Part shown: positions 40,290-61,603 of the stretch, in pieces | How the letters are laid out: each line of letters begins with the position of its first letter | Numbering within the stretch: position 1 is the stretch's first letter | Assembly: GCA_963965975.1 (NCBI GenBank) | Contig: OZ014417.1 | Location: 3,391,821 to 3,455,820 of the forward strand | Source: Xestospongia bergquistia | Taxonomy: Eukaryota > Porifera > Demospongiae > Haplosclerida > Petrosiidae | Length of the DNA: 64,000 nucleotides | Direction of reading: 5' to 3' | Notes under the pieces: model-generated | Told to the model about the DNA's origin: nothing | The model's input: only the letters and a program-made list of their open reading frames with translations | The model's database searches: none | Position numbers and translations under genes: made by a program

Positions 40290-40700
40290 AATCCTTGCAA
40301 TACTGACATTGGTAAGGTTTATCACAGATATGTATACAAACATGGAGATGACTGCTTTGATTAAATCCTTTTCCACAGTACTGTTTTGAAATGACTATTA
40401 TTACTAAATAGTTTTCCACAGTTCTGACATTGGTAAGGTTTATCACCAGTGTGTATGCAAAGATGAGTTTGGAGATGACTATTGTTACTAAATCCTTTTC
40501 CATAGTTCTGAAATTGGTTAGGTTTATCACCAGTGTGTACGCAAAGATGAGTTTGGAGATGACTATTATTATTAAATAGTTTTCCACAGTTCTGACATTG
40601 GTAAGGTTTATCACCAGTGTGTATACAAATATGAGTTTGGAGATGACTATTATTACTGAATAGTCTTCCACAGTTCTGATATTGGTAAAGTTTATCACCA
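40290..40700 (-). pseudogene. C2H2 finger remnant of a lost PRDM9-like unit (Z)
   Basis: About five decayed fingers of the cluster's 84-bp type, e.g. PYQCQNCGKLFSNNSHLQTH. Cysteine or tyrosine codons are mutated in several fingers (NQFQNYGKGF). No SET or upstream exons are attached. It is the leftmost trace of the cluster. Confidence 0.8.
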
Positions 40701-40719
40701 GCATGATATAATTTTTGTG

Positions 40720-41060
40720 TAATGTTCTAGTTAAATTCAAAATTTTATTACAGTTTTTGAAATATACTAGCATTATTGGCCCTCTAACATAGACAAAATA
40801 ATAATCATGCTATCCTTGAATATTATTATAGAATGAAATATAACAAGTTGTATTTTTTTATAGACTAAAATGTAGCAAGTCATTTATTGCCCTAGGATAT
40901 AATATTGCAAGCCAAAGTATTTTTGTTCTAGGATAAATTTTGTGCTGGTAGGACAAAAAAAACCTTGCAGCAATATTTTATCCTAGTATATAATAATTTT
41001 GCAATATTTTATCAGGTGGGACAAATTTAGGTAGGATAATAATTGTTATGACAAAACAAT
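40720..41060. repeat. foldback repeat (shared with 52290-52570)
   Basis: Contains repeated and inverted forms of atattttatcctag and ctaggataaaatattgcaag. A related and clearer foldback lies at 52290-52570, where ccattttttat and ataaaaaatgg pair. Possibly a MITE; termini were not resolved. Confidence 0.5.
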
Positions 41061-41266
41061 TTACATCAACTTTAATTGTATAATAAACACTGCTATCACT
41101 GGTTAGAAATGTTGAATTCACTTCCTTCACTAGCTACAGTGACATTGTATTCTGTTACAGTGCTCTGGACCTTTGCTTCTCTAGATGTATATTGTCCAAT
41201 GTGTGTGTAGTGTTGTTACTATAGTACCTTAATAAAGTGATAATGAATAATGATTAGCAAAAATAG

Positions 41267-43555
41267 TTAATTTATTTTAAGATGAACACGAAGATGACTT
41301 TGGAGACTACCATTCTGACTAAATTCTTTTCCACAGTGTTGACATTGGTAAGGTTTATCACCAGTATGTATACGAAGATGAGTTTTGAGAGGACTGCTTT
41401 GATTAAATCTTTTTAAACAGTACTGACATTGGTAAGGTTTATCATCAGTGTGTATATGAAGATGAGTTTGAAGATTACAATTCTGACTAAATCCTTTTCC
41501 ACAGTAGTGACATTGGTAAGGTTTATCAACAGTGTGTATATGAACATGAGTTTGAAGATCACCATTCTGACTAAATCCTTTTCCACAGTACTGACATTGG
41601 TAAGGTTTATCACCAGTGTGTATACGAACATGAGTTTGAAGATCACCATTCTGACTATATCCTTTTCGACAGTACTGACATTGGTAAGGTTTGTCACCAG
41701 TGTGTATACGAAGATGATACTTCACTGATGACTGACGCAAAATTTTCTTTCTATAATAATCACAATTGTTATCTGGATTTCCAACTACCAGTTTATCATT
41801 GGAAACGAGCCCCATTTTTTGCTTTTCTTCTTCTACATCAAATAGCTCATGTTTACGAATGTGGTCTTGTAACTGATACAATTCACAAAAGCTTTCTTGA
41901 CATTTTTGATAACTAAAACATTGAGGATTAGCAGCAAAACAATTAGGATTATGTCAAAGATGCAAATCAAAATTAGATTTCAAAACAAAGCTACTTCCAC
42001 AGTTTTTGCAATTATAAAGTTGACAATCATCTAAATAGTTATAATTAGTAAAGTTATTACTGTCAAAAGAGTTACCTTACCTTCTTCAAAACTAGTTGTA
42101 ATCCCAAGTTCTCTTGCATATTGTTCACCATACCATACATAGAGTTCATTACCAGGATAGATATGCTTGAATGAACGATAATAGATGTTACCATGATACT
42201 GAAAACTACTAAATTCTGCTCATCTTCATTTCGAGCACAGTTAATAAATCGTAACCAATTACTTTCCTTATCTGATTGACCATCAATATAATATGACTCC
42301 TTTCCAAAACGCTTTACCTGAATAAATTAAAATAATTAATACTTTCTATTAGTTTATTATAGTACCTCCCACATGTAGCTAGTATCTTCTCCTTCAGTCA
42401 GCTCTTCTTTTAACACTCTCCTTCCTTCATAAGGACCAAATCTAACTCTACGAGGTATAAACTGTGTAGCAAAAACACCCAGACCAGCATTGGGTATCTT
42501 AGAAGGTTTAACAGTTAATTCAGCTGGAACAAATACACTACTGTATTGTAGAGATGCTTCATCATGACCACTAGAAGGATCTAGAGTTAGTAAGGGTCCA
42601 TGAGTAGGACAATCACCATGACGAAATTCCTCACAGTCCTCACAAACTAGTAATAAAAGTTGTAGAAGTAACCATATCGATACTGAACTTACAGAGATAT
42701 TCATCTTCATCAGATAGTTCATGATCTTCTCTGTGTTCTTTTTGGTGACTTAATCTATTAGGATATCTTTTACTAACTGGACACTGAGGTACATCACCAC
42801 TGTATTAAGAAAATAACATGAGCAATACTGGAACTAAACACAATAAAATGACATTCATATTTAATTTAAAATTTTAGTACCTTGCGTGATATTATTTGGC
42901 TTTTTCTTATAATCTAACTTACACATCTTCAATATCAAATCCTTCAAAGTCTTCATATTCTTCAATATCATCATCTCCAAATAACTCAAAAAACTCGTTA
43001 GACAACTTGCAATCAAGGCTCTCAAATGAAGGCTCCCCCCCTTCTACAGGTTGGTAATATTTCTTTTTTTGTGGTTTTTGCTGCTTCAAGACACTCATAT
43101 GTTGATAATCCTAACATTATTGAGAGGGATAGCCCAACATTACAGTTGTATCAAACACTTACCACATGTTCTGCTATATGACACAGAGGATCTCTCACTG
43201 TAGTCTCAACTACTGGAACTAAACACAATAAAATGACATTCATATTTAATTTAAAAGTTTATTACCTCTTGTGATATCATTTGGTTTTCTCTTCATCACA
43301 TAAGTCTCTAGAGCAGGTGTCCATTCATCTTTACTATCACTGCTACTATTACTACAATTACTATATCGTCTCCTTCTCTTTTTTCTAACTCTACTCTTGT
43401 TTTGGGACTTAACATCTAAACCTACACACAATCTTTATCACTTTTATTTACCTTGTAATAGTTTTTTACCTAAAATTTTCATGTATTCAATATTTTTTAA
43501 AATATTCTCTAGTCTTCTCTTCTCGTACACATAGTTCTTGCAGTACATGTGCCAT
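41267..43555 (-). pseudogene. PRDM9-like unit A (pseudogene)
   Basis: Recognisable exons: N-terminal exon (ATG at 43555), basic exon ending DEWTPALETYVMK, a VVETTV exon near 43160-43220, the acidic exon, the SSXRD-like exon, zinc knuckle plus first SET half (42722-42367), second SET half and finger exon. Lesions seen: a 2-base deletion in exon 1, a 1-base deletion in the second SET exon (gtagttttcag), and TGA for the Arg codon in DLHLRH. Five good fingers remain (helices such as QNGDLQT, QNCNLQT, QSSPLKT), plus one degenerate finger. Confidence 0.85.
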
Positions 43556-43691
43556 TTTGAACACCTCAGACTAGCTGATAACAGACCATTATTTCCGTTA
43601 AAAATACTAGCCCCTCCCACTTAAACTTTATTGGTTCTTACCAAAATACATTAATTAATAATAATTTTTTTCTAATTAAAATTAAGAGGGT

Positions 43692-43880
43692 TTAATCATC
43701 ATCTGTTGATATTGTAGGTTGTGATAGTTTTGCTCTTTTACGAACTAAATATCTTTCTTTAGCAGACACAGCAGTATCTTCATTTGATCTCTTAGCAGAC
43801 AAACATTGTCTTTTCTCCTCTTGACTCTCCTCAACTACACTGGCTACATTTATAGGAAGATTATCACTATGATCCTCCAT
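43692..43880 (-). pseudogene. acidic-tail gene fragment (unit A side)
   Basis: A minus-strand frame ends SAKERYLVRKRAKLSQPTIS then TDDD and a stop; upstream it is acidic. Near-copies lie at 52137 and 55534, each just upstream of a PRDM9-like unit. It appears to be the 3' exon of a separate same-strand gene whose body (see 44090-44500) is broken. Function is unknown. Confidence 0.55.
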
Positions 43881-44089
43881 GAGTTGTTTGTCATCATGTT
43901 CAGGTGATAAATCTGATGACAGTTCTCTAGATTCTTTATTATCTACTACATTATCTATAACATCATTTTAAGTGTCATCCTCTACATATTGAGATAATTG
44001 TATTGTCTTTATACTTTGTTTGTCCTCTTTTGTTTTTATTTTCATTTCAGTTTTACTGTTGCTCTTCTTTTAAGAATATTTTGATAAAA

Positions 44090-44500
44090 TTGACTCAAAT
44101 CATTTTGTTTAGTGACATCATCATCATGATTGAACAATCATTATAACTAACTTCAATTGAAGAGAGCCAGGTGATATGTCTAGTTGAGAGGCAAGCCTCA
44201 CTGGATGATAAACATTGTATAGACACTGTGTAAGTTTTAGTTGAGTGACCATCTTCAGCAGCGACAACAATATCTATCATTGATGTAGTATCTTCAGTTA
44301 ACTGAACTGTTTTACTTGTAGCATCTCCCTAGAATTAGTAAGACTTAAAAAGTGTAGCTAGAAACAATTTACACCTTGTAAAAGAAGCACCACTGTCACT
44401 GGTTAGAGGCGTTAACTTGACTTACTCCACTAGCTACAATGACACTGTATTCTGATACTGTGCTCTGAATCTTAGGGACTAGTCACCCTGGAACTACTTA
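44090..44500 (-). pseudogene. Cadherin-like beta-sandwich exon fragments
   Basis: The minus strand reads DIVVAAEDGHSTKTYTVSI (44280-44200) and, upstream, TVSEYSVIVASGVSQVN, ended by a stop (44470-44400). Both match the Y-t-v-t and a-e-D-G-t pattern of the Cadherin-like beta-sandwich domain family (PF12733 from memory). Equivalent fragments recur at 48620, 52600 and 56440, one set per PRDM unit. Confidence 0.55.
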
Positions 44501-44600
44501 AATTTCTCTAGGTCTGCCTTGTCCATTGTTTGTGTAGTGTTGTTACTATGGTAACTAAATAAATTATAATAAATAATGATTAGCAAAAATAAATAATTTG

Positions 44601-46511
44601 TTACTTTAAATGAATACGATGTCTTTGGAGACTATAATTCTGACCAAATCTTTTTCCACAGTACTGACATTGATAAGGTTTATCACAAGTGTGTATATGA
44701 AGATGAGTTTGGAGACTACAGTTCTGGCTAAATCCTTTTCCACAGTACTGACATTGGTAAGGTTTATCACCAGTGTGTATATGAAGATGTTTTTTGAGAT
44801 TACTGCTTTGATTAAATCTTTTTCTGCAGTACTGACATTGGTACGGTTTATCACCAGTGTGTATACGAAGATGAGTTTGAAGATTACTGTTATTACTAAA
44901 TCCTTTTCCACAGTACTGACATTGGTAAGGATTATCACTAGTGTGTATACGAAGATGAGCCCTCAATGATGACTGCATTATCAACTAGCAGTTTATCATT
45001 GGAAATGAGTTCTTTTTTATGATTTCTTCCTTTTACATCAAGTTGCTCATGTTTACGAATATGGTCTTGTAACTGATGCAATTCACAAAAACTTTCTTTG
45101 CATTTTTGACAAGTAAAAACATTGAGGATTAGCAGCAAGACAATTAGGATTATGTCGAAGATGCAAATCAAAATTATCTTTCAAAATAAAACTACTTCCA
45201 TGCAATTAAAAAGTTGACAATCATCTAAAAATAAATAGTAAATTTTATTTCTGCCAAAAGAATTACCCTACTTTCTTCAAAACTAGCTGTAATCCCAAAT
45301 TCTTTTGCATATTGTTAACCATACCATACATAGAGTTCACTACCAGGATAGATATGTTTGAATGAGCAATAATAGATGTTACCATGATACTGAAAAGCTA
45401 TTAAATTCAATTCATCTACATTGCGAGTACAATGAACAAATCGTAACCAATTACTTTGATTATCTGACTGACCATCAATATAATATGACCTCTCTCCAAC
45501 ACGCCTTACGTGAATAGATTAAAATAATAAATGCTTTTTATTATTTTAGTACAGTACCTCCCACATGTAGCTAGTATCTTCTCCTCTAGTGACCTCTTCT
45601 TTTAACACTCTCCTTCCTTCAAGCCTAACTCCACGAGGTATAAACTGTGTAGCAAAAACACCCAGTCCACCATTAGGTATGTTAGAGGGTTTAACAGTTA
45701 ATTCAGATGGAACAATTACAGTAGTGTTTTATAGAGATGCTTCATTGTGACCACTAGAAGGATCTAGAGTTAGTAAGGGTCCATGAACAGGACAATCACC
45801 ATGATGAATCTCCTCACAGTCCTCACAAACTAATAATGAGTATAGAAGTAACCATATTGATACTGAACTTACAGAGATATTCATCTTCATCAGATAGTTC
45901 GTCTTCTCTGTATTCTTTTTGTTGAATTAATCTCTTAGGATATTGTTCACTAACTGGACACTGAGGTACATCACCACTGTATTAAGATAAATACATCATC
46001 AATACTGATATAATCTAACTTACACATCTTCAATATCAAATCCTTCAGAGTCTTCATATTCTTCATTATTATTATCTCCAAATAATTCAAAAAACTTATT
46101 AGATAACTTGCGATCAAGGCTCTCAAATGAAGGCTCCTCCCCCTCTACAGGTTTGTAATATTTCTTCTGCTGTGCTTTTTGCTGCTTCAAGATTCTCGTA
46201 AGTGATATAAACACAAAGAATAGTGTCCATATTTTATCGACAAGTCTTTTACCTCTCATGTCATTTGTTTTTTCTTCATCACACAAGTCTCTAGATCAGG
46301 TGTATTACAATTACTATATCGTCTCTTTCTCCTTTTTCTAACTCTACTCTTCTTTTGGGACTTAACATCTAAACCTACACACAATCATTATGACTTTTTA
46401 TTCATCTTGCAATAGTATTATACCTAAAGTTTACATGAGTTCAATATTCTTTCCAACATTTTCTAGTCTGCTTTTCTCATAGTCACATAATTCTTGCATT
46501 ATATCTGCCAT
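44601..46511 (-). pseudogene. PRDM9-like unit B (pseudogene)
   Basis: All major exons are traceable from an ATG at 46511 to the finger stop at 44601. Lesions: stop in exon 1 (ATG TAA where C has ATG AAA), deletion of most of the Ser/Asp-rich part of exon 2, a stop in the SET exon (CTA TAA), loss of the G-P-Y segment before E-G-R-R, and TAA after VWYG. The array is short, about four fingers (helices NNSNLQT, QSSNLKK, QNCSLQT, QNYSLQR). Confidence 0.85.
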
Positions 46512-46735
46512 TTTGAACACCTCAGACTAGCTGGTAAACTTAGCCAGACGTTCTGCAAGGGGAGGCAACGTCTGACAAACTCGCATTGAATGTTATTATA
46601 GTTGAAGATCACAACACTTCCTGGTACACGTGACACCTCGTGGTACTTTGTTTTAACACTCCTACGTTACTCTGTCTAGTTTGAGTGTGCGATCAAAAAG
46701 TCATTTGAGAAGAGAAAGTTGTAGTCATTTTCTTT

Positions 46736-47404
46736 ATAGGTCCTTGTTATGTGATGTTATTATTACTGCTCAAAAATGCTGTGTTTCATATTTAAGAATA
46801 TTTATATAATGTCCTCTGTTCTACTAATAAATGTACATGTAAATTAAAGAATCTGTTTAGATTTTTTTACAGACTTTAACATCGTTTCTGGACACAGACA
46901 ATTACTCTACTTAAGAAAGACCTATATAGCTAACTTCATAAAAAATTTGAAGTGATTTCACTACCTATCTATATTTAGTCTAATACCATAGACCAAAAGG
47001 TTAAAAATTGAGAATTTGGTCCATGTCACTAAATCATTTAAAATTTTTTGTGGAGTTAGCTATATAGGTCCCTGTTAAGTGACATTATTATTACTGCTCT
47101 AAAATGTTGTGTTTCATATTTTAAAATATTTATATAATGGCCTTTGTTTTACTAATAAATGTCCATGTAAATTAAAGAATCTGTTTATTTTTTTATAGAC
47201 TTTAATATCATTTCAGAACACAAACAATTACTCTACTTAACAAGGACCTATATAGCTAACTTCATAAAAAATTTGAAGTCATTTTGCTACCTATCATTTT
47301 AGGCCATTTTAAGCTCAATACCATGGACCAAAAGGTTAGAAATTGAGAATTTGGTCCATGTCACTAAATCACTTAAACGTTTTTGTGGAATTAGGTATAT
47401 AGGT
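46736..47404. repeat. two tandem ~330-bp units, each with a foldback element
   Basis: Unit 1 begins ataggtccttgttatgtgat at 46736 and unit 2 ataggtccctgttaagtgac at 47064; a third start appears at 47398. Inside each, gacctatatagctaacttca and its near reverse complement ggagttagctatataggtc bracket ~150 bp (46917-47072 and 47246-47404). The pattern suits a foldback MITE amplified in tandem. No coding sequence. Confidence 0.75.
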
Positions 47405-47589
47405 CCTTGTACAGTACTCAAAGGTCACGAAAAGAAAAGAAGACAATTTTAATTGCAAGAAAGAACTAATTCTGTTGTTGTTCCAAACATAACTGTACAT
47501 GTACACTTACCAACAATATAACTTAAGTATTAGATTCCACCTTTCATCTATAATTCATTTGTCTATTCAATTTCACACATAATAGTATG

Positions 47590-48270
47590 CCATAAGCAAC
47601 TGATTACACATACCTGTGGATGATAGGGTGTGGTATAGTGTCACTTTATGCCAGGAAGTTTTATAAGATCTTTGTCAAGTTGGCATCTAAACTCTGCCTT
47701 AGTTACTTGTCAACAGTTTAGGAAGACCCATTCTTATAAAAATCTGTGAGAAATATGCATATGAATTATATAAATATTGAATAATAACAATATGAATATT
47801 TACTTTTAATAATAATCATTACCTTGAATAAATTTTCAGTGACACTATGGGCAGATTTACTAGGCAAGGGAACAGCCTCTACCCATATTGTAAAATAATA
47901 TAACATAGTGAGATAAAATGATTCCTATTTCTGGATGTTGAACATATTGGACTGATGAAGTCAATTGCTACATGTTACCATGGAGAATGTGCTGGTATTG
48001 GATGAAGCTCTCTGTTAATGACAATTAGTTTTTTGTTCATCCTATGACATTCATTACAGGTAGCAACCTACATGTGTTGATATAAAACAATGCTAACTCT
48101 TAAACAAACTTGCCATTTCTTTGACATCATTCCATATACCTTTCCAAATAAATAATTCCCTGATTTGTTTTATTGTTTTTAAACCCAATATGTCCCTATG
48201 TTTGGACTATTGTAATGTGTTTCACAATCCTTAATTGCTCACTTTGAGATTGTATGTATTTAACTATGTA
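47590..48270 (-). mobile_element. Ty3-type integrase remnant
   Basis: The minus strand reads, with stops, VATCNECHRMNKKL (integrase zinc-finger end), then ELHPIPAHSPW and HVAIDFISPI (first catalytic Asp region), and further on a segment recalling R-M-G-L-P and the S-N-Q-G turn. These fit a chromovirus/Ty3-like integrase. No LTR or intact frame. Confidence 0.6.
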
Positions 48271-48619
48271 CAGTATTTTTAACACTCTCCTTCCTTCATA
48301 AGGACCAAACCTAACTCCATGAGGTATAAACTGCTAAGCAAAAAAAAAAAACAATTTACACCTACATTAATTGTACCATACAGAAGCACTACTGTCACGG
48401 GTTCGTTAGACTTCACTACTCCAATAGCTACAATGACACTATATGACACTATATTCTGTTACTGTGCTCTGGATCTTTGGGACTAGTCGTCCTGGAACTA
48501 CTTTAACTTCTCTAGATCTGTATTGTCTATTGTTTGTGTAGTGTTATTACTATGGAAACTTAATAAAGTCTAATGTATATGTAAATAATTATCAAAAATG
48601 GTCACTAACTATTTTAGAT

Positions 48620-49070
48620 GAATAAGATAGAGATTGCCATTTTAGTTGAATCAGCAGTGACAACAATCTCTATCAACTAGTATCTTCATTAAACTGTTTT
48701 CTTTTTATGTCAGTGTGTTAAGAGAGCCAAGCATCACTGGGTGATAAACATTGTATAGATATTGTGTAAGTTTTAGCTGAGTGAACATCTTCAGCAGTGA
48801 CAGCAATCTCTATCAGTGAAGTAGTACCTTCAGATAATTGAAATGTTTTACTTGTAGCATCTCCCTAGAATTAGTAAGACTTAATTATAATTAAAGTCTA
48901 GCTAGAAACAACTTACACCTACTTTAATTGTATAACAACAGTAATCTCCAAGCTCATCACTATCACTGGTTAGAGGTTTTAATATGACTTCACTTACTCC
49001 ATTAGCTACAGTTACCATATATTCTGTTACTTTGCTCTGGAACTTTGGGACTAGTCACATTGGAGCTACT
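48620..49070 (-). pseudogene. Cadherin-like fragments (between units B and C)
   Basis: Same family as 44090-44500. The exon with EDVHSAKTYTISIQ lies near 48720-48800, and one with a VTVANGVSEV-like frame lies near 48960-49020. Internal partial duplication of the first exon is seen at 48640-48690. Confidence 0.5.
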
Positions 49071-49156
49071 TTAACTTGCATTGTCCATTGTTTGTGTAGT
49101 GTTGTTATTATGGTAACTTAATGTGTAATGAAAATGATTAGTACAAAAAAATATTA

Positions 49157-51740
49157 TTATTTTAGATGAATATGAAGATGTCTTTGGAGACTACCATTAT
49201 GACGAAATCCTTTTCCACAGTACTGACATTGGTAAGGTTTATCACCAGTGTGTATACGAATATGAATTTGGAGACTACTACTATGATTAAATCTTTTTTC
49301 ACAGTGCTGACATTGGTAAGGTTTATCATCAGTGTGTATACGAACATGACTTTGGAGATTACCATTCAGACTAAATCTTTTTCCACAGTACTGACATTGG
49401 TAAGGTTTATCACCAGTGTGTATACGGACATGAGTTTGGAGATTAAAGCTTTTTTTAAATCCTTTTCCACAGTACTGACATTGGTAAGGTTTATCACCAG
49501 TGTGTATACGAAGATGAGTTTGGAGACCTCCATTCTGACTAAAACCTTTTCCACAATACTGACATAGGTAAGGTTTATCACGAGTGTGGATACGAAGATG
49601 TTTTTTAAGATTACTATTCTGAATAAATCCTTTTCCACAGTACTCACATTGGTAAGGTTTATCACCAGTGTGTATACAAAGATGAGTTTGGAGATTACAA
49701 TTCTGACTAAATCTTTTTCCGCAGTACTGACATTGGTAAGGACTATTACCAGTGTGTATATGATGATGTCTTTGGAGACTACTATTCTGACTAAATCTTT
49801 TTCCACAGTACTCACATTGGTAAGGTTTATCACTGTGTGTATAAAGATGTCTTTGGAGATCATTATTCTGACAAAAATCTTTTCCACAGTACTGACATTG
49901 GTAATGTTTATCACCAGTGTGTATATAAAGATGTTTGCAGAGATTACTCTTGTTACTACATCTTTTTCCACAGTAATGACATTGGTAAGATTTATCACCC
50001 ATGTGTATAGGAAGATGTTTTCGAAGACTACCATTATGATTAAATCCTTTTCCACAATACTGACATTGGTAAGGATTATCACCAGTGTGTATATGAAGAT
50101 GAGTCCTCAACGATGACTGACGAGAAAATTTCTTTCCACAATAATCACACATATAATCTTCATTCTCAACCAGCAGTTTGGAAATGAGCCTTTTTTTATT
50201 TATTTCTTTTTCATCAAGTTGCTCATGTTTACGAATGTGGTCTTGTAACTGATACAATTGACAAAAACTTTCTTGACATTTTTGACAAGTAAAACATTGA
50301 GGATTAGCAGCAAGACAATTAGAATTATGTCGAAGATGCAAATCAAAATTGGCTTTCAAAACAAAACTATTTCCACAATTTTTGCAATTATAAAGTTGAC
50401 AATTATCTAAAAATAGATAGTAAATTTTATTTCTGCCAAAAGAATTACCTTACTTTCTTCAAAACTAGCTGTAATCCCAAGTTCTCTTGCATATTGTTCA
50501 CCATACCATACATAGAGTTCATTACCAGGATAGATATGCTTGAATGAGCGATAATAGATGTTACCATGATACTGAAAAGCTATTAAATTTTGTTCATCTA
50601 CATTGCGAGCACAGTTAATAAATCGTAACCAGTTACTTTGCTTATCTGATTGACCATCAATATAATATGAACCCTCTCCAAAACGTCTTACCTGAATAAA
50701 TATAACTAATTAATAATTTTGTATTTATTACAGTACCTCCCACATGTAGCTAGTATCTTCTCTTTTAGTGAGCTCTTCTTTTAATACTCTCCTTCCTTCA
50801 TAAGGACCAAACCTAACTCCACGAGGTATAAACTGTGTAGCAAAAACACCCAGTCCAGCATTGGCTATCTTAGAAGGTTTAACAGTTAATTCAGATGGAA
50901 CAAATACAGTAGTGTATTGTAGAGATGCTTCATTATGACCACTAGAAGGATCTAGAGTTAGTAAGGGTCCATGAACAGGACAGTCACCATGATGAAATTC
51001 CTCACAGTTGTCACAAACTAGTAACAAAAGTTGTAGAAGTAACCATATTGATACTGAACTTACAGAGATATTCATCTTCATCAGATATTTTATCTTCTCT
51101 GTATTCTTTTTGGTGAAATAATTTCTTAGAATATCGTTCACTAACTGGATACTCAGGTACATCACCACTGTATTAAGAAAAATATATCAACAATACTGAT
51201 ATAATCTAACTTACACATCTTCAATATCAAATCCTTCAAAGTCTTCATATTCTTCATTATTATCATCTCCAAATAACTCAGAAAATTTTTTAGACAACTT
51301 GCAATCAAAGCTCTCAAATGAAGGCTCCTCCCCCTCTACAGGTTGGTAATATTTCTTCTGCTGTGTGTTTTGCTGCTTCAAGATTCTTGTAAGTTGGTTA
51401 TCTAAATACAAAATAAAGGTGTTCATATTTTATTTACAAGTTTATTACCTATCATGACATCATTTGGTTTTTTCTTCATCACATAAGTCTCTCTAGCAGG
51501 TACCCATTCATCTCCAGTATCACTGCTACTATTACTACAATTACTATATCGTCTCCTTCTCTTTTTTCTAACTCTACTCTTTTTTTGGGACTTAATATCT
51601 AAACCTACTCACAAACTTTATCACTTTTATTTACCATACAATAGTATTATACCTAAAGTTTTCATGTGTTCAATATTCTTTTCAACATTCTCTAGTCTTC
51701 TCTTCTCATAGTCACATAATTCTTGCATTACATCTGCCAT
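49157..51740 (-). CDS. PRDM9-like histone methyltransferase, unit C (apparently intact)
   Basis: Seven exons join in frame: 51740-51653, 51604-51449, 51401-51215, 51167-51064, 51017-50737, 50691-50454 and 50406-49157, giving 767 residues. Exon 1 (ending LENVEKNIEHMKTLG) and exon 2 (ending with D61-E62-W63) resemble the KRAB end and S-D-E-E-W-T-P stretch of vertebrate PRDM9. An acidic exon and an SSXRD-like piece (ERYSKKLFHQKEYRED) follow. A zinc knuckle starts at Cys180. The PR/SET domain (about 200-350) has FGPYEGR, INCAR, NLIAFQYHGNIYYR and VWYGEQY with the expected catalytic Tyr335. A solitary proximal finger, a second finger and twelve arrayed fingers complete the protein. Expected role: nuclear H3K4/K36 methylation at sites chosen by the fingers; in this animal that is inference. 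It lacks the VVETTV cassette exon seen in A, D and F. Confidence 0.88.
49160..50155 (-). repeat. 84-bp zinc-finger minisatellite, unit C (12 fingers)
   Basis: Twelve tandem fingers, almost all 28 codons, with a near-constant frame HTGDKPYQCQYCGKGF. Helix sequences (-1 to 6) in order: RQSSLRT, HNGSLRK, NKSNLCK, QNNDLQR, QNSSLQR, QNCNLQT, QNSNLKK, QNGGLQT, KSFNLQT, LNGNLQS, HSSSLQI, HNGSLQR. Finger 3 has Cys for the core Phe and finger 4 a shortened linker. Variation is concentrated at -1, 2, 3 and 6. Confidence 0.9.
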
Positions 51741-52136: not shown

Positions 52137-52283
52137 TCAATCATCATCTGTTGAAATCGTAAGTTGTAATAGGTTTGCTCTCTTACGAGCTAAATATCTT
52201 TCTTTAGCAGACATAGCAGTATCTTCATTTGTTCTTTTAGCACACAAATGTTGTCTTTTCTCCTCTTGACTCTTCTCAACTGT
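52137..52283 (-). pseudogene. acidic-tail gene fragment (unit C side)
   Basis: The minus strand ends SAKERYLARKRANLLQLTIS then TDDD and a stop, matching 43692 and 55534. Upstream (52290-52570) it is cut by a foldback repeat like that at 40720. Confidence 0.55.
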
Positions 52284-52289
52284 AATAAA

Positions 52290-52570
52290 ATTTCTGTACA
52301 ATGTTCTAGATAATTTCAAAAGTTTATTACATTTTTTAAAATATGCTAGTATACCTCTAACACAGACAAAATGATAATCATGCAATCCTAAAATATAGCA
52401 AGACATTTATTGTCCTGGGATAAAGTAATCCAAACCATTTTTTATACAAGGATAAAATATTGCAAGTCAAAATTTTTTTGTCTTTAGATAAATTTGTGAC
52501 AAAATCTTGCAGCAATATTTTATCCTAGGATAAAAAATGGTTTGCAATATTTTATCTGGTGGAACAAATT
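52290..52570. repeat. foldback repeat with atattttatcctag motif
   Basis: The left half (caaaccattttttatacaag, then gataaaatattgcaag) pairs with the right half (cttgcagcaatattttatcc, then ataaaaaatggtttg). A related copy lies at 40720-41060. Probably a short non-autonomous element. Confidence 0.6.
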
Positions 52571-52599: not shown

Positions 52600-52790
52600 A
52601 CCTCTACTACTTGTTAAAGGTGTTAACTTGACTTCACTTACTCCACTAGCTACAGTAACACTATATACTGTTACTGTGCTCTGGAACTTTGGAACTAGTT
52701 TTCAAGGAACTACTTTTGACTTCTCTAGATCTGTATTGTCCATTGTTTGTATAGTGTTGTTACTATAGTAACTTAATGAAGTGTTAATAA
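52600..52790 (-). pseudogene. Cadherin-like fragment (between units C and D)
   Basis: A minus-strand frame of the TVTVYSVTVASGVSEVK type lies at about 52620-52690, followed on that strand by the shared 3' sequence leading away from the finger exon. Only one exon of the set survives here. Confidence 0.45.
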
Positions 52791-52824
52791 ATAGTCATTA
52801 GAAAAAATAGTTAATTATTTTTAA

Positions 52825-53700
52825 GATGAACATGAACATGACTTTGGAGACTAAGATTCCCACTAAATCCTTTTCCACACTACTGACATTGGTAAGGTCT
52901 ATCACCAGTGTGTATACGAAGATGAGTTTGGAGATTACTATTATCACTAAATGCTTTTTCACAGTACTCACATTGGTAAGGTTTATCACCAGTGTGGATA
53001 CGAAGATGAGTTTGGAGATTACCATTCTGACTAAATCCTTTTCCACAGTAGTGACATTGGTAAGGTTTATCACCAGTGTGTATACGAAGATGAGTTTGGA
53101 GACTACAGCTTTGATTAAATCCTTTTCCACAGTACTCACATTGGTAAGGTTTATCACCAGTGTGTATACGAACATGAGTTTGTAGATTACAGCTTTGTTT
53201 AAATCCTTTACCACAGTACTGACATTGGTAAGGTTTATCACCAGTGTGTATAAGAAGATGAGTTTGGAGACTACTATTCCGACTAAATCCTTTTCCACAG
53301 TACTGACATTGGTAAGGTTTATCACCAGTGTGTGTACGAAGATGTCTTTGGAGATCAATATTCTGACAAAAATCTTTTCCACAGTACTGACATTGGTAAC
53401 GTTTATCACCAGTGTGTATACGAAGATGTTTTTGGAGATTACTCTTATTACTACATCTTTTTCCACAGTATTGACACTGGCAAGTTTTATTACCAGTGTG
53501 TACACGAAGATGTTTTTGGAGATCACCATTCTGATTAAATCCTTTTCTACAGTAATGACATTGGTAAGATCTATCACCCATGTGTATAGGAAGATGTTTT
53601 CGGAGACTACCATTATGACTAAATCCTTTTCCACAATACTGACATTGGTAAAGATTATCACCAGTGTGTATACGAACATGAGTCCTCAATGATGACTGAC
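52825..53700 (-). repeat. 84-bp zinc-finger minisatellite, unit D (10 + 1 fingers)
   Basis: Helix sequences in order: CQSSLRT, HNGSLRK, QNGDLQK, NKSNLQK, QNIDLQR, RNSSLQT, QSCNLQT, QSCSLQT, QNGNLQT, DNSNLQT, then an untranslated GNLSLQS. The framework between helices is almost invariant at DNA level. Confidence 0.88.
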
Positions 53701-55413
53701 AAGAAAATTTCTTTCCACAATAATCACACATATTATCTGCATTCTCAACTAGCAGTTTATCATTGGAAATCAATTCTTTCTTATAATTTCTTCCTTTTAC
53801 ATCAAGTTGCTCGTGTTTACGAATGTGGTGTTGTAACTGATACAATTCACAAAAGTTTTCTTGACATTTTTGACAAGTAAAACATTGAGGATTAGAAGCA
53901 AGACAATTAGGATTATGTCGAAGATGCAAATCAAAATTGGCTTTCAGAACAAATCTACTTCCACAATTTTTGCAATTATAAAGTTGACAATTATCTAAAA
54001 ATAGATAGTAAATTTTATTTCTGCCAAAAGAATTACCCTACCTTCTTTAAAACTAGCTGTAATCCCAAGTTCTCTTGCATATTGTTCACCATACCATACA
54101 TAGAGTTCATTACCAGGATAGATATGCTTGAATGAGCGATAATAGATGTTACCATGATACTGAAAAGCAACTAAATTCTGTTCATCTTCACTGCGAGCAC
54201 AGTTAATAAATCGTAACCAATTACATTGCTTATCTGATTGACCATCAATATAATATGACCTCTTTCCAACGTGCTTCACCTAAATAATTTAAAAAATTAA
54301 TTTTTTTTTATTATATTATTACAGTACCTCCCACATGTAGCTAGTATCTTCTCCTTTAGTGAGCTCTTCTTTTAACACTCTCCTCCCTTCAAAAGGACCA
54401 AACCTAACTCCACGAGGTATAAACTGTGTAGCAAAAACACCCAGACCTGCATTGGCTATCTTAGAAGGTTTAACAGTTAATTCAGATGGAACAAATACAC
54501 TAGTGTATTGTAGAGATGCTTCATCATGACCACTAGAAGGATCTAGAGTTAGTAAGGGTCCATGTACAGGACAATCACCAAGATGAATTTCCTCACAGTT
54601 GTCACAAACTAATAATACAAGTTGTAGAAGTAACCATATTGATACTAAACTTACAGAGATATTCATCTTCATCAGATAGTTCATCTTCTCTGTATTCATT
54701 TTGGTGAATTAATCTCTTAGGATATCGTTCACTAACTGGACAATGAGGTATATCACCACTGTATTAAGAAAAAACATCAGCAATACTGATATAATCTAAC
54801 TTACACATCTTCAATATCAAATCCTTCAAAGTCTTCATATTCTTCATTATTATCATCTCCAAATAACTCAAAAAACTCATTAGACAACTTGTAATCAAGA
54901 CTCTCACATATAGGTTCCTCCCCTTTTAAATTTAAAGGTTTGTAAAATTTCTTCTGCTGTGGTTTTTGCTTTTTCAAGACTCTCGAGACTTGATGATCCT
55001 ACCATTATAAAGAGATAGTACAACATTACATCTGCATCAAATACTTACCACATGTTTTCCTATATTACACTGTATTACTACTGGAACAAGCATAAAGAAT
55101 TAAATCCATATTTTATATATATATTATTACCTCTCATGCTATTTGTTTTTTTTTTCGTCACACAAGTCTCTAGAGCAGGTGTCCATTCATCTCCACTATC
55201 ACTGCTACTATTACTATATTGTCTCTTTCTCCTTTTTCTAACTCTACTCTTCTTTTGGGACTTGACATCTAAACCTATAATACAATCTTTATGACTTTTA
55301 TTTATCATGCAATATAGTATTTTACCTAAAGTTTTCTTGGGTTCAATACTCTTTTCAACCTTCTCTAGTCTTCTCATCTCATACTTGCATAATTGTTCCG
55401 TTACATGTGCCAT
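52880..55413 (-). CDS. PRDM9-like histone methyltransferase, unit D (intact frame, last finger cut)
   Basis: Eight exons join in frame: 55413-55326, 55274-55131, 55080-55049, 54998-54805, 54758-54655, 54608-54328, 54279-54042 and 53994-52880, giving 731 residues. Domain order is as in unit C: KRAB-end-like exon (LEKVEKSIEPKKTLG), basic exon ending SSSDSGDEWTPALET, a short cassette exon (VVIQCNIGKHV), acidic exon, SSXRD-like exon, zinc knuckle, PR/SET with FGPFEGR, INCARSEDEQ, FQYHGNIYYR and VWYGEQY, proximal finger, second finger and ten arrayed fingers. An eleventh finger follows but its first Tyr codon is TAG, so translation stops at PYQCQ. Fingers differ from those of C, predicting another DNA target. 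Confidence 0.85.
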
Positions 55414-55533
55414 TTTGAACACCTCAGACTAGCTGATAAACAAAATAACAGCCACTATTTCCGTTAAAAATACTAGCCCCTCCCACTAAAATTTTATTGG
55501 TCTTACCAAAAAAGTAATAATAATTATTTTTAA

Positions 55534-55785
55534 TTACAAGTTAAGAGGATCATCTGTTGAAATGGTAGGTTGTGATAGTTTTGCTCTTTTGCGAACTAAA
55601 TATCTTTCTTTAGCAGACATAGCAGTATCTTCATTTGTTAGCAAACAAACGTCGTCTTTTCTCCTCTTGATTCTCCTCAACAACACTGGCTGCACTTTCA
55701 GGAAGATTATTACTATGATCCACCTTGAGTTGTTTGTCATCATGTTCAGGTGATCAATCTGATGACAGTTCTCTACATTCTTCAT
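55534..55785 (-). pseudogene. acidic-tail gene fragment (unit D side)
   Basis: The minus strand has SAKERYLVRKRAKLSQPTIS then TDDP; the frame is shifted relative to the copy at 43692 (NEDTAMSAKERY preceded by altered text). Same gene as 43692 and 52137. Confidence 0.5.
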
Positions 55786-56439
55786 TATCTACTACATTAT
55801 TTATAATATCATTTTGAGTTTCATGCTCTATGTCTTGGAATAATTCTATTGTCTTTATACTTTGTTTGTCCTCTTTTGTTTTTATTTTTATTTCAGTTTT
55901 AATATTGCTCTTCTTGTCAAGAATATTTCAATAAAATTGACTTCAATCATTTTTTGTTTAGTGACATCATTCAACTCTATTGCAAGATTAACATAATTAT
56001 ATTTAACAATCATTGTAACTAACTTAACAATTATTGTAACTAAATTAACAGTCATTGTATACGTAATTAACTTTCTTTGGAGAGAACCAAGTTGATACGC
56101 ATCTAGTTGACTAAGTTGAGATAGCCAAGCATCACTGGGTGATAGACGTCATTTATAACTAACAGCCTTCCATTAATTATCATTATTTTATACAGGAGGA
56201 TATTATAGTTACTATTGATACTCTAACAGGTCAAAGAAAATCCTTGTTTGGAAATGTGAAAAAAATATAGAAGTAGTACAGTAGAAATAAAAAGAACAAT
56301 ATGGTGTCAGATATATACATGATATATTACATGTTTTTACTACATACAATTGTAACATTGTAACATTATTGTGATATTTATTTATTTATTTATTCATTTA
56401 GAGTGCCATCCTCTACATGTTCAAATAATTCTATTGTCT

Positions 56440-56860
56440 TTAGACTTTGTACTCTTTTATTTCAGTTTGTTAAGAGAGGCCAACATCACTGGATGATAAA
56501 CATTGTATAGATATTGTGTAAGTTTTAGTTGAGTCACCATCTTCAGCAGTGACAACAATCTCTACCACTGTAGTACCTTCAGATAACTGAACTGTTTTAT
56601 TTGTAGCATCTACTTAGGATTAGTAAGACTTAATTATAATTAAAGCCTAGCTAGAAACAACTTACACCTACTTTAATTATATAATAATAGTAATATCCAA
56701 GCTCATCACTATCACTGGTTAGAGGTTTAACATAACTTCACTTACTCCATTAGCTACAGTGACCATATATTCTGTTACTGTGCTCTGGAACTTTGGGACT
56801 AGTCACATTAGAGCTACTTTAACTTCTCTAGACTGCATTGTCCATTGTTTGTGTAGTGTT
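56440..56860 (-). pseudogene. Cadherin-like fragments (between units D and E)
   Basis: Minus-strand pieces with VEIVVTAEDGDSTKTYTISI near 56580-56480 and EYMVTVANGVSEVM near 56780-56730, as in the other intergenic intervals. No start or complete domain. The 56160-56400 stretch to the left shows nothing recognisable. Confidence 0.55.
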
Positions 56861-56911
56861 GTTACTATGGTTACTTAATGTGTAATGAAAATGATTAGTA
56901 CAAAAAACTTA

Positions 56912-58870
56912 TTATTTTAGATGAATATGAAGATGTCTTAGGAGACTACCATTATGACGAAATCCTTTTCTACAGTACTCACATCGGTAAGGTTTATCAC
57001 CAGTGTGTATACAAAGATGCGTTTGGAGATTACAATTATCACTAAATCCTTTTCCACAGTACTTACATTGGTAAGGTTTATCACCAGAGTGTACATGAAG
57101 ATGAGTTTGGAGATTACCATTCTCACTAAATCCTTTTCCACAGTACTCACATTGGTAAGGTTTATCACCAGAGTGTATATGAAGATGTCTTTGGAGACTA
57201 CCATTCCGACTAAATCTTTTTCCACAGTACTGACATTTGTAACGTTTATCACCAGTATGTATACGAAGATGTTTGCGGAGATTAGTCTTATCACTACATC
57301 TCTTTCCACAGTACTGACACTGGCTAGTTTTATCACAAGTGTGTATACGAAGATGTTTTTGGAGATCACCATTCTGATTAAATCCTTTTCTACAGTACTG
57401 ACATTGGTAAGATTTATCACCCATGTGTATAGGAAGATGTTTTCGGAGACTACCATTATGACTAAATCCTTTTCCACAATACTGACATTGGTAAGGATTA
57501 TCACCAGTGTGTATATGAAGATGAGTCCTCAACGATGACTGACAAGAAAATTTCTTTCCACAATAATCACACATATTATTTGCATTCTCAACTAGCAGTT
57601 TATCATTGGAAATGAGCCTTTTTTACATCAAGTTACTCATGTTTATGAATGTGGTGTTGTAACTGATATAATTCACAAAAACATTCTTGACATTTATGAC
57701 AAGTAAAACATTGAGGATTAGCAACAAGACAATTAGGATTATGTCGAAGATGCAAATTAAAATTACCTTTCAAAACAAAACTACTTCCACAATTTTTGCA
57801 ATTATAAAGTTGACAATCTTCTAAAAATAAATAATAAATTTTATTTCTCAAAAAAACTACCCTACCTTCTTCAAAACTAGCTGTGATCCCAAGTTCTTTT
57901 GCATATTGTTCACCATACCATACATAGAGTTCATTACCAGGATAGATATGCTTGAATGAGCGATAATAGATGTTACCATGATACTGAAAAGCTATTAAAT
58001 TCTGTTCATCTTCATTGCGAGCACAGTTAATAAATTGTATCCAGTTACTTTGCTTATCTGATTGACCATCAATATAATATGACCTCTCTCCAATACGCTT
58101 CACCTGAATAAATTAAAATAATTATAACATTTTTATTATTTTATTACAGTACCTCCCACCTGTATTTAGTATCTTCTCCTTCAGTGAGCTCTTCTTTTAA
58201 CACTCTCCTTCCTTCATAAGGACCAAACCTAACTCCACGAGGTATAAACTGTGTAGCAATATCACCCAGACCAGCATTGGCTATCTTAGAAGGTTTAACC
58301 AGAGATAATAAATATCATATGATATTTATTATCTCTGGTTTCACAGTTAATTCAGCTGGAACAAATACAGTAGTGTATTGTAGAGATGCTTCATCATGAC
58401 CACTAGAAGGATCTAGAGTTATTAAGGGTCCGTGAACAGGACAGTCACCATGATGAAATTCCTCACAGCTGTCACAAACTAATAATGAAAGTTGTAGAAA
58501 TATCCATATTGATATTTGATACTGAACTTACAGAGATATTCATCTTCATCGGATAGTTCATCTTCTCTGTATTCTTTTTGATGAATCAATCTGTTAGGAT
58601 CTGAATATCGTTCACTAACTGGACACTGAGGTACATCGCCACTGTATTAAGAAAAAAACATCAGCAATACTGATATAATCTAACTTACACATCTTCAATA
58701 TCAAATCCTTCAAAGTCTTCATATTCTTCATTATTATCATCTCCAAATAACTCAAAAAACTCATTAGACAACTTGCAATCAAGGCTCTCAAATGAAGGCT
58801 TCTCCTCCTCTACAGGTTTGTAATATTTCTTCTGCTGTGGTTTTTTTCGCTTTAAGGCTCTTGTAACTTA
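56912..58870 (-). pseudogene. PRDM9-like unit E (pseudogene, 5' end lost)
   Basis: Begins with the acidic exon (58870-58690, FELFGDDNNEEYEDFEGFDI); exons 1-3 are missing, with a LINE remnant in their place. The zinc-knuckle/SET exon is split by a 44-bp palindrome at 58297-58340 that brings in TGA. The second SET exon (58103-57860, VKRIGERSYYIDGQ to VWYGEQYAKELG) is intact. The finger exon has GAG TAA where C and D have GAG CAA, plus a deletion before the array. Eight arrayed fingers remain (helices CQSSLRT, HNGSLRK, QNGDLQK, DKTNLRK, RNGSLQR, ENGNLQT, DNCNLQT, HNGSLLR). Confidence 0.88.
58297..58340. repeat. perfect 44-bp palindrome in a PRDM9-like SET exon
   Basis: Arms 58297-58318 and 58319-58340 meet at catatg without spacer. 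The other units read straight through here (gaaggtttaacagttaattc), so these bases are an insertion in unit E only. Confidence 0.93.
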
Positions 58871-58929
58871 GTGATTTAAACACAAAAGAATGATGTCCAT
58901 ATTTTATTGACAAGTTCATTATCTCTTGT

Positions 58930-59600
58930 GTCCTTTGTTTTAAGATTTATGAAAGGTCAATTCATTGTTACTACTTTACTGTCTATAACTTACGAATAGT
59001 TACAGACACTTGAAAACAGAAATGAAGTTTGTGTTGTTTTCTTCAACTTTAAAAGGCTTTTCATTTTGTCCCTATGCTTGCTTCACTATTCAGCATAATA
59101 TGACTGTGTTAATAAATAATTACATTATTAAGTGGATTACCAACTACCTCAAAAACAGAAGACAGGTTGTTGTAGTTAATATAGTAGTAAAGCAGACACT
59201 GCACTAGTTCTTTCAGGAGTTCCTCAGTGATCAATTTTGGGTCTAATACTATTTTTTGTTTAATTTAATGACATAAAAGAATTAACATGTAATGGAGAGT
59301 TGACACTCCAGCAGATGACTTGTTGTTGTATCAGAGGATCACCTCAGTCGATGACTTTACTTTGTTTAAAATGATATTTCATCCATAGAGAGGTTGTCAG
59401 AAGCAAAGTATCTATCTGTAAATACATCAAAATGCAAATATATGATGACTTTAATGTTTAAAATAATGAACGAAATATTTTATTTCAAGTGGTTTGTTCT
59501 TTCAGACCACTAACTTTTCTCTTCCACTAGTACATATTATAACTCATTTATCCAGCAACTGTTAGAAAAAGGGAATCTATTGAGTGAATCCCAAATAAAG
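58930..59600 (+). mobile_element. LINE remnant replacing the 5' end of unit E
   Basis: Homologous to 39165-39860 (atttatgaaaggtcaattca start, L-A-D-D-L-L-L-Y region near 59310, then tccagcaactgttag). Flank 59600-60050 also matches 39860-40290. Plus strand, many stops. Confidence 0.75.
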
Positions 59601-60049
59601 CAATCTATATTGACATCTTTTAAATTTAAATTATTTCTTTATATAATTGTAATATTATAAGTACCATATTAATTTTTCCTTACTAGGTCATTTCATCTTA
59701 TTAGTTAATAATACTATGTGAATGTCCTGTACTTATTATTATCAACACATTAAAATGTTTAAAATAATTAAAAAAGCAAAATAGTCTCACATATTCAGCC
59801 CCTCCTTTAAGAAGGTTTGGGTATGCAAGACTTGTGGAGGGCTGGCTATGTGAGACTAGTGGTGGTTGTAACTTGTAATAAATTAATATTTGGTGGTACA
59901 ACGAAAATTAACTTTGGGAATGCCCCACAATTTGCGAATATTTTCTTCTGCTGGGAAAATTCCTGACATATTGTATTATATGCAACAAAAATGACTATTG
60001 ACTCTAATAACTTAATAATATATAATACAAGTTTTTCAGTATATATTTC

Positions 60050-61603
60050 CTTATGATACTGACATTGATAAGGTTTATCACCAGTGTGTATACAAAGATG
60101 AGTTTGGAAATTTCTATGATTAACGAATCCTTTTCCACAGTATTGACATTTGTAAGGTTTATCAAAACACTACTTCCACAATTTTTGCAATTATAAAGTT
60201 GACAATCATCTAAAAATAGATAGTAAAGTTATTTCTGTCAAAACAATTACCTTACCATCTTCAAAACTAGTTGTAATCCCAAGTTCTCTAGCATATTGTT
60301 CACCATACATAGAGTTCATTACCAGGATAAATATGCTTGAATGAACGATAATAGATGTTACCATGATATTGAAAAGCTACTAAATTCTGTTCATCTTCAT
60401 TGCGAGCACAGTTAATAAATCGTAAGCAATTACTTTCCTTATCTGATTGACCATCAATATAATATGACTCCTCTTCAAAATGTTTTATCTCAATAAATTA
60501 AAATAATTAATATTTTTTAATTTTATTACAATACATCCCATGTGTGGCTAGTATTTTCTCCTTTAGTGAGGTCTTCTTTTAACGCTCTCCTTCCTTCATA
60601 AGGACCAAATCTAACCAGCATTGTGTATCTCAGAAGGTTTAACAGTTAATTCAGATGGAACAAAGACACTAGTATATTGTAGAGATGTTTCATCATGACA
60701 CTAGAAGGATCTAGAGTCAGTAATGGTCCATGAACAGGATAATCACCATGATGAAATTCCTCACAGTCCTCACAAACTAGTAACAAAAGTTGTAAAAGTA
60801 ACCATATTCATACTGAACTTACAGAGATATTCGTCTTCATCAGATAGTTCATCTCCTCTGTATTCTTTTTGGTGAATTAATCTCTTAGGATCCGAATATC
60901 ATTCACTAACTGGACACTGAGGTACATCACCACTGTGTTAAGAAAAAAACAACAGCAATACTGATATAATCTAACTTACACATCTTCAATATCAAATCCT
61001 TCAAAGTCTTCATATTCTTCATTATTATCATCTCCAAATAACCTGCAAAAAAATCATTAGACAACTTGCAATCAAGGCTCTCAAATGAAGGCTCCTTTCC
61101 CTCTACAGGTTGGTAAGATTTCTTTTGTTGTGGTTTTTGTTGCCTCAAGACACTTGTATCTTAATGATCCTAACATTATTGAAATAGAGAGATAGCCCAA
61201 CATTACAGTTGTATCAAACACTTACCAAATATTCTGCTACATCACATAGAGGATCTCTCACTGCAGTCTTAACTACTGGAACTGAAGACAATAAAATTAC
61301 ATTTATATTTAATTTAAAAGTTTATTACCTCTTATGATATCATTAGATTTTTTCTTCATCACACAAATCATTAGACAAGGTATCCATTCATCTCCACTAT
61401 CACTGCTACTATTACTACAATTACTATATCGTCTCCTTCTCCTTTGTTTTGGGACTTGTCATCTAAATCTACACAATCTTTATGATTTTTTATTTACCAT
61501 GTAATAGTAATTTACCTGAAGTTTTCGTGAGTTCTATATTCTTTTTAATATTCTGTAGTCCTCTTTTCTCGCAGTCACACAATTCTTGCATTACATCTGC
61601 CAT
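60050..61603 (-). pseudogene. PRDM9-like unit F (pseudogene)
   Basis: An ATG at 61603 starts MADVMQELCDCEKRGLQNIK. Exon 2 has lost about 16 bases of its basic stretch and is out of frame. The cassette exon reads VVKTAVRDPLCDVAEYL. The acidic exon is frameshifted (NDFFAGYLEMIIMK), the next exon has TGA for Arg (VSE stop), the first SET exon lacks several segments near 60610, and only about two fingers remain at 60050-60160. It is the most decayed of the multi-exon units. Confidence 0.82.

What the first reader, a model, noticed from the sequence alone, without database searches (positions are those of the whole stretch)
40290..61603. Tandem cluster of PRDM9-like genes in a probable sponge
Six multi-exon units and one finger-only remnant lie head to tail on the minus strand. 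Each multi-exon unit has the PRDM9 order: N-terminal exons, SSXRD-like piece, zinc knuckle, PR/SET, solitary finger, finger array. Two (49157-51740 and 52880-55413) assemble without a break and four are pseudogenes. PRDM9 directs meiotic recombination in many vertebrates but usually exists as one or two copies. A birth-and-death cluster in an early-branching animal would be a natural comparison for how the system evolves.
Basis: partly seen in the sequence, partly recalled or inferred. Interest (0 to 1): 0.9.

Follow-up and report, generated by a model that had tools for sequence, protein, structure and literature searches.

The report
Sponge genome with many PRDM9 copies
A sponge genome carries dozens of copies of PRDM9, the gene that chooses where chromosomes recombine in many vertebrates, and the complete copies examined differ in their DNA-reading part, which gives a natural test of how this self-eroding system evolves.

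Summary
Units C (49157-51740) and D (52880-55413) are seven-exon PRDM9-type genes; the other four units and a finger remnant are broken. The own-genome search gives 69 merged PR/SET places, about 67 of them PRDM9-like, 57 of the 69 on one contig. Of 42 units whose SET and finger exons I held, 21 read through with at least 4 fingers. The SET domains fall in the PRDM7/9/11 clade (96/90) inside a sponge clade (100/98). The second half of KRAB, SSXRD and zinc knuckle align to other PRDM9 proteins; the first half of KRAB seems absent. All three catalytic tyrosines are kept in 19 of 23 proteins; D has lost one. The four DNA-contacting finger positions are the four most variable, and in recent duplicates they change about 3.5 times faster than other positions. 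All 21 arrays with at least 3 fingers differ. The genome also holds two CW-PWWP loci, the layout of ZCWPW1/2. PRDM9 in sponges is already known; the massive multi-copy repertoire is a new variant. A meiotic role is inferred, not shown.

The parts
49157..51740 (-). Unit C: complete PRDM9-type gene, 7 exons (51740-51653, 51604-51449, 51401-51215, 51167-51064, 51017-50737, 50691-50454, 50406-49157), 767 aa, 13 C2H2 fingers by pattern
   Evidence: all three catalytic tyrosines present
52880..55413 (-). Unit D: complete PRDM9-type gene, 7 exons (55413-55326, 55274-55131, 54988-54805, 54758-54655, 54608-54328, 54279-54042, 53994-52880), 717 aa, 11 C2H2 fingers by pattern, last finger cut by an in-frame TAG; Tyr276-equivalent is Phe
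50454..51017 (-). Zinc knuckle and PR/SET exons of unit C
   Evidence: phmmer best PDB match PRDM9 (4c1q, 1.4e-44, 155.6 bits) against 107 bits for PRDM14 and 84 for PRDM11; tree
51064..51167 (-). SSXRD-like exon of unit C
   Evidence: profile-profile alignment to PRDM9 N-termini; no Pfam SSXRD match at E 0.1
51653..51740 (-). Exon 1 of unit C, second half of a KRAB-related motif (KRAB boundaries from my own knowledge)
   Evidence: profile-profile alignment from residue 5-6 onward; ATG at this position in 37 of 38 units that could be tested
49157..50406 (-). Finger exon of unit C: solitary fingers and tandem array (84-bp period)
41267..43434 (-). Unit A: broken PRDM9-type copy (exon 1 not found, SET exon 6 matched in two frames, stop in finger exon)
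44601..46511 (-). Unit B: broken PRDM9-type copy (stops in exons 1, 5, 6 and 7)
48277..48342 (-). 22-residue fragment of SET exon 5 in the spacer below unit C
   Evidence: similar fragments in three other spacers
56912..58867 (-). Unit E: broken PRDM9-type copy (exons 1 and 2 not found, stops in exon 5 and finger exon)
59846..61603 (-). Unit F: broken PRDM9-type copy (several stops and splits)
40361..40726 (-). Finger-only remnant, 84-bp period
43692..43967 (-). X: C-terminal coding fragment of an unidentified gene upstream of unit A, carried with the amplified unit (other copies within ORFs 52137-52406 and 55534-55788)
   Evidence: 68 genome matches of 81 candidates scored, all lying in the regions of the PRDM9 places

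Best explanation
This is a lineage-specific, birth-and-death expansion of the sponge PRDM9 orthologue. Shown: orthology of the SET domain, the exon order with part of KRAB, SSXRD, zinc knuckle, SET, solitary fingers and finger array, many complete copies, constraint on the SET domain, and fast change of the DNA-contacting finger positions between recent copies. Inferred: in germ cells each expressed copy binds its own DNA motif through its array, trimethylates H3K4 and H3K36 nearby, the marks are read by the CW-PWWP (ZCWPW-type) proteins, and double-strand breaks are placed there. With many copies, new specificities would arise by finger duplication, deletion and gene conversion among paralogues, so turnover of hotspots would run by gain and loss of genes as well as by alleles.
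For: SET tree: PRDM7/9/11 clade 96/90, sponge clade 100/98, own copies one clade 100/99. PDB comparison best to PRDM9 over zinc knuckle plus SET. N-terminal profile alignments: E 8.6e-16 to a vertebrate, 1.9e-30 to a cnidarian and 8.8e-36 to a third, mainly bilaterian, PRDM9 set. 21 of 42 units complete with at least 4 fingers. SET pN/pS 0.44 (codon bootstrap 0.29-0.66) among 22 copies with a frame over 500 aa. All three catalytic tyrosines in 19 of 23 proteins. Highest entropy positions of 184 array fingers are -1, +2, +6, +3 in that order. In three independent recent pairs the contact positions carry 23 of 43 nonsynonymous differences at non-structural positions, reached by 1 of 7315 sets of four positions. 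21 of 21 arrays with at least 3 fingers have distinct contact signatures. Two loci with CW finger followed by PWWP; presence of ZCWPW1/2 is coupled to that of PRDM9 in vertebrates (PMC8892340, title and start of abstract in the listing).
Against: No expression, histone or recombination data were available. Pfam KRAB and SSXRD models do not match at E 0.1, and the first half of KRAB is missing; in vertebrates partial PRDM9 lacking KRAB or SSXRD goes with slow fingers and is thought not to direct recombination (PMC5519329, passages). Of the window's two intact copies, D has lost Tyr276. SET constraint is moderate; 10 copies not counted as intact show 0.64 against a consensus, 21 intact ones 0.46. 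Most of the contact-position signal comes from one pair: 21 of 23 nonsynonymous contact differences, another close pair has none, and moving of whole fingers by gene conversion could add to the signal. On the N to S ratio alone the contrast is weak (Fisher 0.053). High variability of contact positions is also usual in other multi-finger genes (my knowledge), and no other finger family of this genome was measured as a control. Within-array identity (median 0.845) is lower than the over 90% of mouse PRDM9 (PMC2779102, passages). The C9 CW finger resembles MORC3 more than ZCWPW1/2.
Confidence: 0.55

Rival explanations
1. The family is a set of sequence-specific chromatin modifiers that act on transposable elements or satellite DNA, a sponge counterpart of the KRAB zinc-finger genes. 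The fast finger change would follow invading elements, not hotspot erosion.
For: Large tandem clusters, many complete copies and diversified contact residues are what an arms race with mobile elements would also give. The KRAB remainder is only partial.
Against: The SET domain keeps the catalytic tyrosines of PRDM9 in 19 of 23 proteins, and SSXRD, zinc knuckle and CW-PWWP loci are present, which fits the meiotic pathway. No link to any element was tested here.
Confidence: 0.22
2. Only one or a few copies work; the rest are a by-product of segmental amplification and are decaying, as for the alpha paralogues of salmonids, many of which are truncated or broken.
For: 21 of 42 examined units fail my criteria; near-identical pairs lie in opposite arms of inverted clusters; the unit carries along a fragment X that is broken in several copies; salmonid pattern (PMC11703093, passages).
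Against: SET pN/pS among copies with a frame over 500 aa is below 1 with a bootstrap interval of 0.29-0.66, and contact positions change preferentially, which neutral decay would not give.
Confidence: 0.2
3. The clusters are inflated by assembly: haplotypes or repeats laid out as separate copies.
For: Three copies on C7, about 19 to 347 kb apart, have SET dS of zero in all three comparisons.
Against: Median SET dS between the 22 compared copies is 0.11, and even the pair with pS 0 before the array differs in 7 of 12 fingers. Copies lie on several contigs.
Confidence: 0.03

Closest known systems
PRDM9 of Amphimedon queenslandica, Halichondria panicea and Dysidea avara (P0001, P0018, P0002-P0008, P0013, P0017, P0019, P0046)
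   Same: SET domains of 10 of these 13 (those put in the tree) form one sponge clade with the window copies; SET followed by a finger array in those with an array; Dysidea also has many (11 protein clusters)
   Different: Identity to unit C 63% for Amphimedon and 52-55% for Dysidea over the searched region; Halichondria came up only with the Amphimedon query. Own and Dysidea copies are separate clades. One cluster each was seen for Amphimedon and Halichondria, in searches that are not exhaustive
Vertebrate PRDM9 (human 4ijd/6nm4, mouse 4c1q)
   Same: Zinc knuckle, PR/SET with the three tyrosines, SSXRD, second half of KRAB; finger array in one exon
   Different: First half of KRAB absent, KRAB and SSXRD below Pfam detection, tens of copies
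Salmonid PRDM9 paralogues
   Same: Repeated duplication with many truncated or broken copies (PMC11703093, passages)
   Different: 6-14 copies, partly from genome duplications, at least one full-length copy per species; here about 67 places and at least 21 complete copies, mainly in clusters
Cnidarian PRDM9 (Hydractinia P0009, Nematostella P0022 and P0025)
   Same: Hydractinia has the same short N-terminus beginning in the second half of KRAB; Nematostella fingers show selection at -1, 3, 6 (PMC2779102, passages)
   Different: The 8 cnidarian rows are a clade next to the sponges (96/83); no expansion of this size appears in the protein lists, which are not a genome census

Membership tests
PRDM9 (PRDM7/9/11 group) | SET domain inside the PRDM7/9/11 clade | tested here: met
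   Support 96/90 against 9 other PRDM rows; sponge clade 100/98
PRDM9 (PRDM7/9/11 group) | Zinc knuckle before SET | tested here: met
   C-x2-C-x7-C-x2-H pattern in 21 of 23 proteins; aligned to human and mouse PRDM9
PRDM9 (PRDM7/9/11 group) | SSXRD domain | tested here: met
   Profile-profile alignment to three PRDM9 sets covers it; Pfam model gives no match at E 0.1, so met by alignment only
PRDM9 (PRDM7/9/11 group) | KRAB domain | tested here: inconclusive
   Only the second half aligns; no Pfam match; in-frame stop within 7 codons above the ATG in 34 of 38 units, but an upstream spliced exon is not excluded for all
PRDM9 (PRDM7/9/11 group) | Catalytic tyrosines 276, 341, 357 | tested here: met
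   All three in 19 of 23 proteins; C has all, D has Phe at 276; residues named in PMC5519329 (passages)
PRDM9 (PRDM7/9/11 group) | Tandem C2H2 array with rapid change at DNA-contact positions | tested here: met
   caveat that one recent pair carries most of the signal and that no control finger family was measured
PRDM9 (PRDM7/9/11 group) | Reader partners ZCWPW1/ZCWPW2 in the genome | tested here: met
   Two loci with CW then PWWP; exons joined by eye, no tree made, and the C9 CW finger scores higher to MORC3 than to ZCWPW1/2
PRDM9 (PRDM7/9/11 group) | Meiotic expression, H3K4me3/H3K36me3 activity, hotspot placement | not testable with these tools
   No RNA, chromatin or crossover data
KRAB zinc-finger transposon silencers | KRAB-A box that recruits TRIM28 | tested here: not met
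   No Pfam KRAB match and the first half of the motif missing; TRIM28 binding itself cannot be tested here
KRAB zinc-finger transposon silencers | Binding to transposable elements | not testable with these tools
   No binding data

The most novel reading that the evidence does not exclude
This sponge runs a multi-gene PRDM9 repertoire: many paralogues with different DNA specificities are active together in meiosis, spreading hotspots over many motifs and renewing them by gene birth, death and conversion instead of by successive alleles of one gene, which would answer the hotspot paradox in another way and would be an independent solution repeated in other sponges such as Dysidea.
Probability: 0.33. 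Interest if true: 0.9.

Novelty: new variant of a known kind. Interest (0 to 1): 0.74.

Why it matters
A 2026 review says that full-length PRDM9 homologues exist in cnidarians and sponges but that it is unknown whether the function was kept over 600 million years, and traces the hotspot role back only to the ancestor of bony vertebrates (PMC13186367, passages). A sponge with tens of copies, nearly complete architecture, fast-changing fingers and candidate reader proteins allows the question of ancestral function to be tested, and it offers a system in which the Red Queen turnover would act on a gene family. It also raises the possibility that the first half of KRAB is a later addition, since both this sponge and Hydractinia begin in the second half; loss in both is the alternative.

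Tried and rejected
Considered and rejected: (1) chance zinc-finger and SET matches, excluded by scores. (2) Another PRDM family: PRDM14, 12, 1, 2, 4, 5 and 10 form the other side of the tree. MECOM and PRDM16 have lower PDB scores but were not put in the tree. (3) X as a first exon of the PRDM9 genes: it ends in a stop before the ATG and is broken in several copies, so I take it for a carried-along fragment; its family was not found.

Led nowhere or went wrong: literature searches for the expansion. 'PRDM9, Porifera, zinc finger' gave 2 papers, 'PRDM9, Amphimedon' 4, 'PRDM9, tandem, copies, invertebrates, zinc finger array' 0, 'Prdm, Amphimedon, zinc finger, expansion' 3; by their titles and abstract starts none is about such a cluster, and I opened none of these. 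'PRDM9, sponge' gave 39 papers, 25 listed; I read passages of two of these (PMC13186367, PMC11577847). So 'not in print' rests only on these searches. The first assembly of C used two wrong splice points and broke the frame; replace it. A first splice-site check had an off-by-one error on the minus strand and was repeated. That check accepts an in-phase GT or AG within 18 to 21 bases of the expected point; in the 21 complete copies 94 of 126 donors and 114 of 126 acceptors are at the exact point, the other donors 3 bases away. A tree display failed and was repeated.

Full report
What is there. The window lies in a 146-Mb genome of 21 contigs (contig C7, bases 3391821-3455820). Between 40290 and 61603, on the minus strand, are six multi-exon units and a finger-only remnant. 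Units C and D splice into 767 and 717 aa with GT/AG introns. A, B, E and F are broken. D ends at a TAG in its last finger.

How many. PF21549 matches 96 exon pieces in the own genome; merged within 900 bases on one strand they make 69 places: 57 on C7, 8 on C1, 2 on C4, 1 each on C11 and C14. The C11 place looks by eye like a PRDM14-type gene and the weak second C4 match was not examined, so about 67 are PRDM9-like, fragments included; the search tool calls its counts lower bounds. I held 42 units with both SET exons and the finger exon: 6 in the window, 12 at C7 835-905 kb, 8 on C1, 1 on C14 and 15 short loci of the main C7 cluster. Of these 21 give an open reading frame from ATG of over 500 aa with at least 4 fingers. 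Not fetched: places of the main C7 cluster below the first 30 matches and outside the window, those at C7 4.0-4.34 Mb, and those on C4.

What it is. The zinc knuckle and SET of C match mouse PRDM9 best in the PDB (155.6 bits; next family PRDM14, 107; PRDM11, 84). In a 55-row SET tree the 46 PRDM7/9/11 rows are one side of a branch (96/90), the sponges one clade (100/98), the eight own copies one clade (100/99) and the eight Dysidea rows another (100/99). So the expansion here arose after the split from Amphimedon, and Dysidea expanded separately, or each lineage is homogenised. For this tree I used 8 of 23 own proteins and 37 of the 120 proteins found.

N-terminus. Pfam reports neither KRAB nor SSXRD. 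Profile-profile alignment of 22 own N-termini to PRDM9 sets of 9 vertebrate, 6 cnidarian and 7 other sequences (6 bilaterian, 1 sponge) starts in the second half of KRAB and runs through the DEWTP-type motif, SSXRD and zinc knuckle (E 8.6e-16, 1.9e-30, 8.8e-36). The limits of KRAB and SSXRD are from my own knowledge. Exon 1 starts with ATG in 37 of 38 units, with an in-frame stop within 7 codons upstream in 34 of 38. Hydractinia P0009 has the same short start.

Function of SET. Tyr276, 341 and 357 are all present in 19 of 23 proteins; three, D among them, have Phe at 276 and one has Phe at 357. Among 22 copies with a frame over 500 aa pN/pS is 0.44 for SET (bootstrap 0.29-0.66), 0.33 for zinc knuckle, 0.43 for the solitary fingers and 0.60 for the N-terminus. 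Against a consensus, 21 intact copies give 0.46 and 10 others 0.64; not all of these 10 are clear pseudogenes, some only fail my splice or length criteria.

Fingers. In 184 array fingers from 22 copies the most variable positions are -1, +2, +6 and +3. In the six closest pairs, which share units, pooled contact pN is 0.078 and pS 0.027, other non-structural positions 0.022 and 0.029. In three independent pairs contact positions have 23 changes over 281 nonsynonymous sites, the others 20 over 1247 (Fisher 1.5e-7), but the N to S contrast gives 0.053. One pair with no synonymous change before the array differs in 7 of 12 fingers and supplies 21 of the 23 changes; another pair differs in none of 8 aligned fingers. 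Within arrays median nucleotide identity is 0.845, lower than the over 90% of mouse fingers (PMC2779102, passages). Array C7_898169 contains, by contact signature, a duplicated block of four fingers. No other finger family of the genome was measured for comparison.

Partners. zf-CW matches two places in the own genome. The five PWWP exon matches are elsewhere, but reading 3.2 kb at each zf-CW place shows a PWWP next to the CW finger, confirmed by Pfam on the joined pieces. In the PDB the CW finger of the C6 locus is closest to ZCWPW1 (51.6 bits, MORC3 46.6), that of the C9 locus to MORC3 (45.8, ZCWPW2 35.4). The CW-then-PWWP layout is why I call them ZCWPW-type, which rests on my knowledge of these proteins and not on a tree.

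Known or new. PRDM9 homologues in sponges are stated in PMC13186367 (passages), which cites PMC2779102 (passages) and Ponting 2011 (not read). Multi-copy PRDM9 is known in salmonids, 6-14 copies (PMC11703093, passages), and is suggested by the protein lists for several invertebrates. I found no paper on an expansion of this size.

Verdict. Orthology: near certain. Large lineage-specific expansion with complete copies: shown. Role in recombination by a repertoire of specificities: best explanation at about 0.55 for a meiotic PRDM9 role, about 0.33 for many copies acting together.

Noticed in passing
window 11446-12525, 23525-24010, 31846-33015, + strand: Three similar ORFs that look by eye like seven-transmembrane receptors, in tandem, the middle one short; the first has no Pfam match at E 0.01, the others were not scanned.
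   Followed up: partly
window 4849-5754, - strand: ORF of 301 aa that looks by eye like part of a sodium/proton antiporter.
   Followed up: no
window 43692-43967, 52137-52406, 55534-55788 and 68 genome matches: Fragment X, a C-terminal coding piece ending STDDD, sits above exon 1 of many PRDM9 units; all 68 genome matches lie in the regions of the PRDM9 places; open in some copies, broken in others.
   Followed up: partly
C1 1.667-1.753 Mb and C7 3.43-3.95 Mb of the own genome: Both clusters consist mainly of a minus-strand arm and a plus-strand arm, with near-identical copies across the arms (C1_1670566 and C1_1738581; C7_3583224 and C7_3930334), an arrangement that could favour gene conversion.
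   Followed up: no
L047 5097-5412 and 5730-6537: SET exon and fingers that resemble by eye a PRDM14-type gene on contig C11.
   Followed up: no
P0009 and own exon 1: PRDM9 of Hydractinia and of this sponge both start in the second half of KRAB, so the first half may be a later addition or lost twice.
   Followed up: partly
window 17675-18007: Tandem repeat of 95 bases, 3.5 copies.
   Followed up: no
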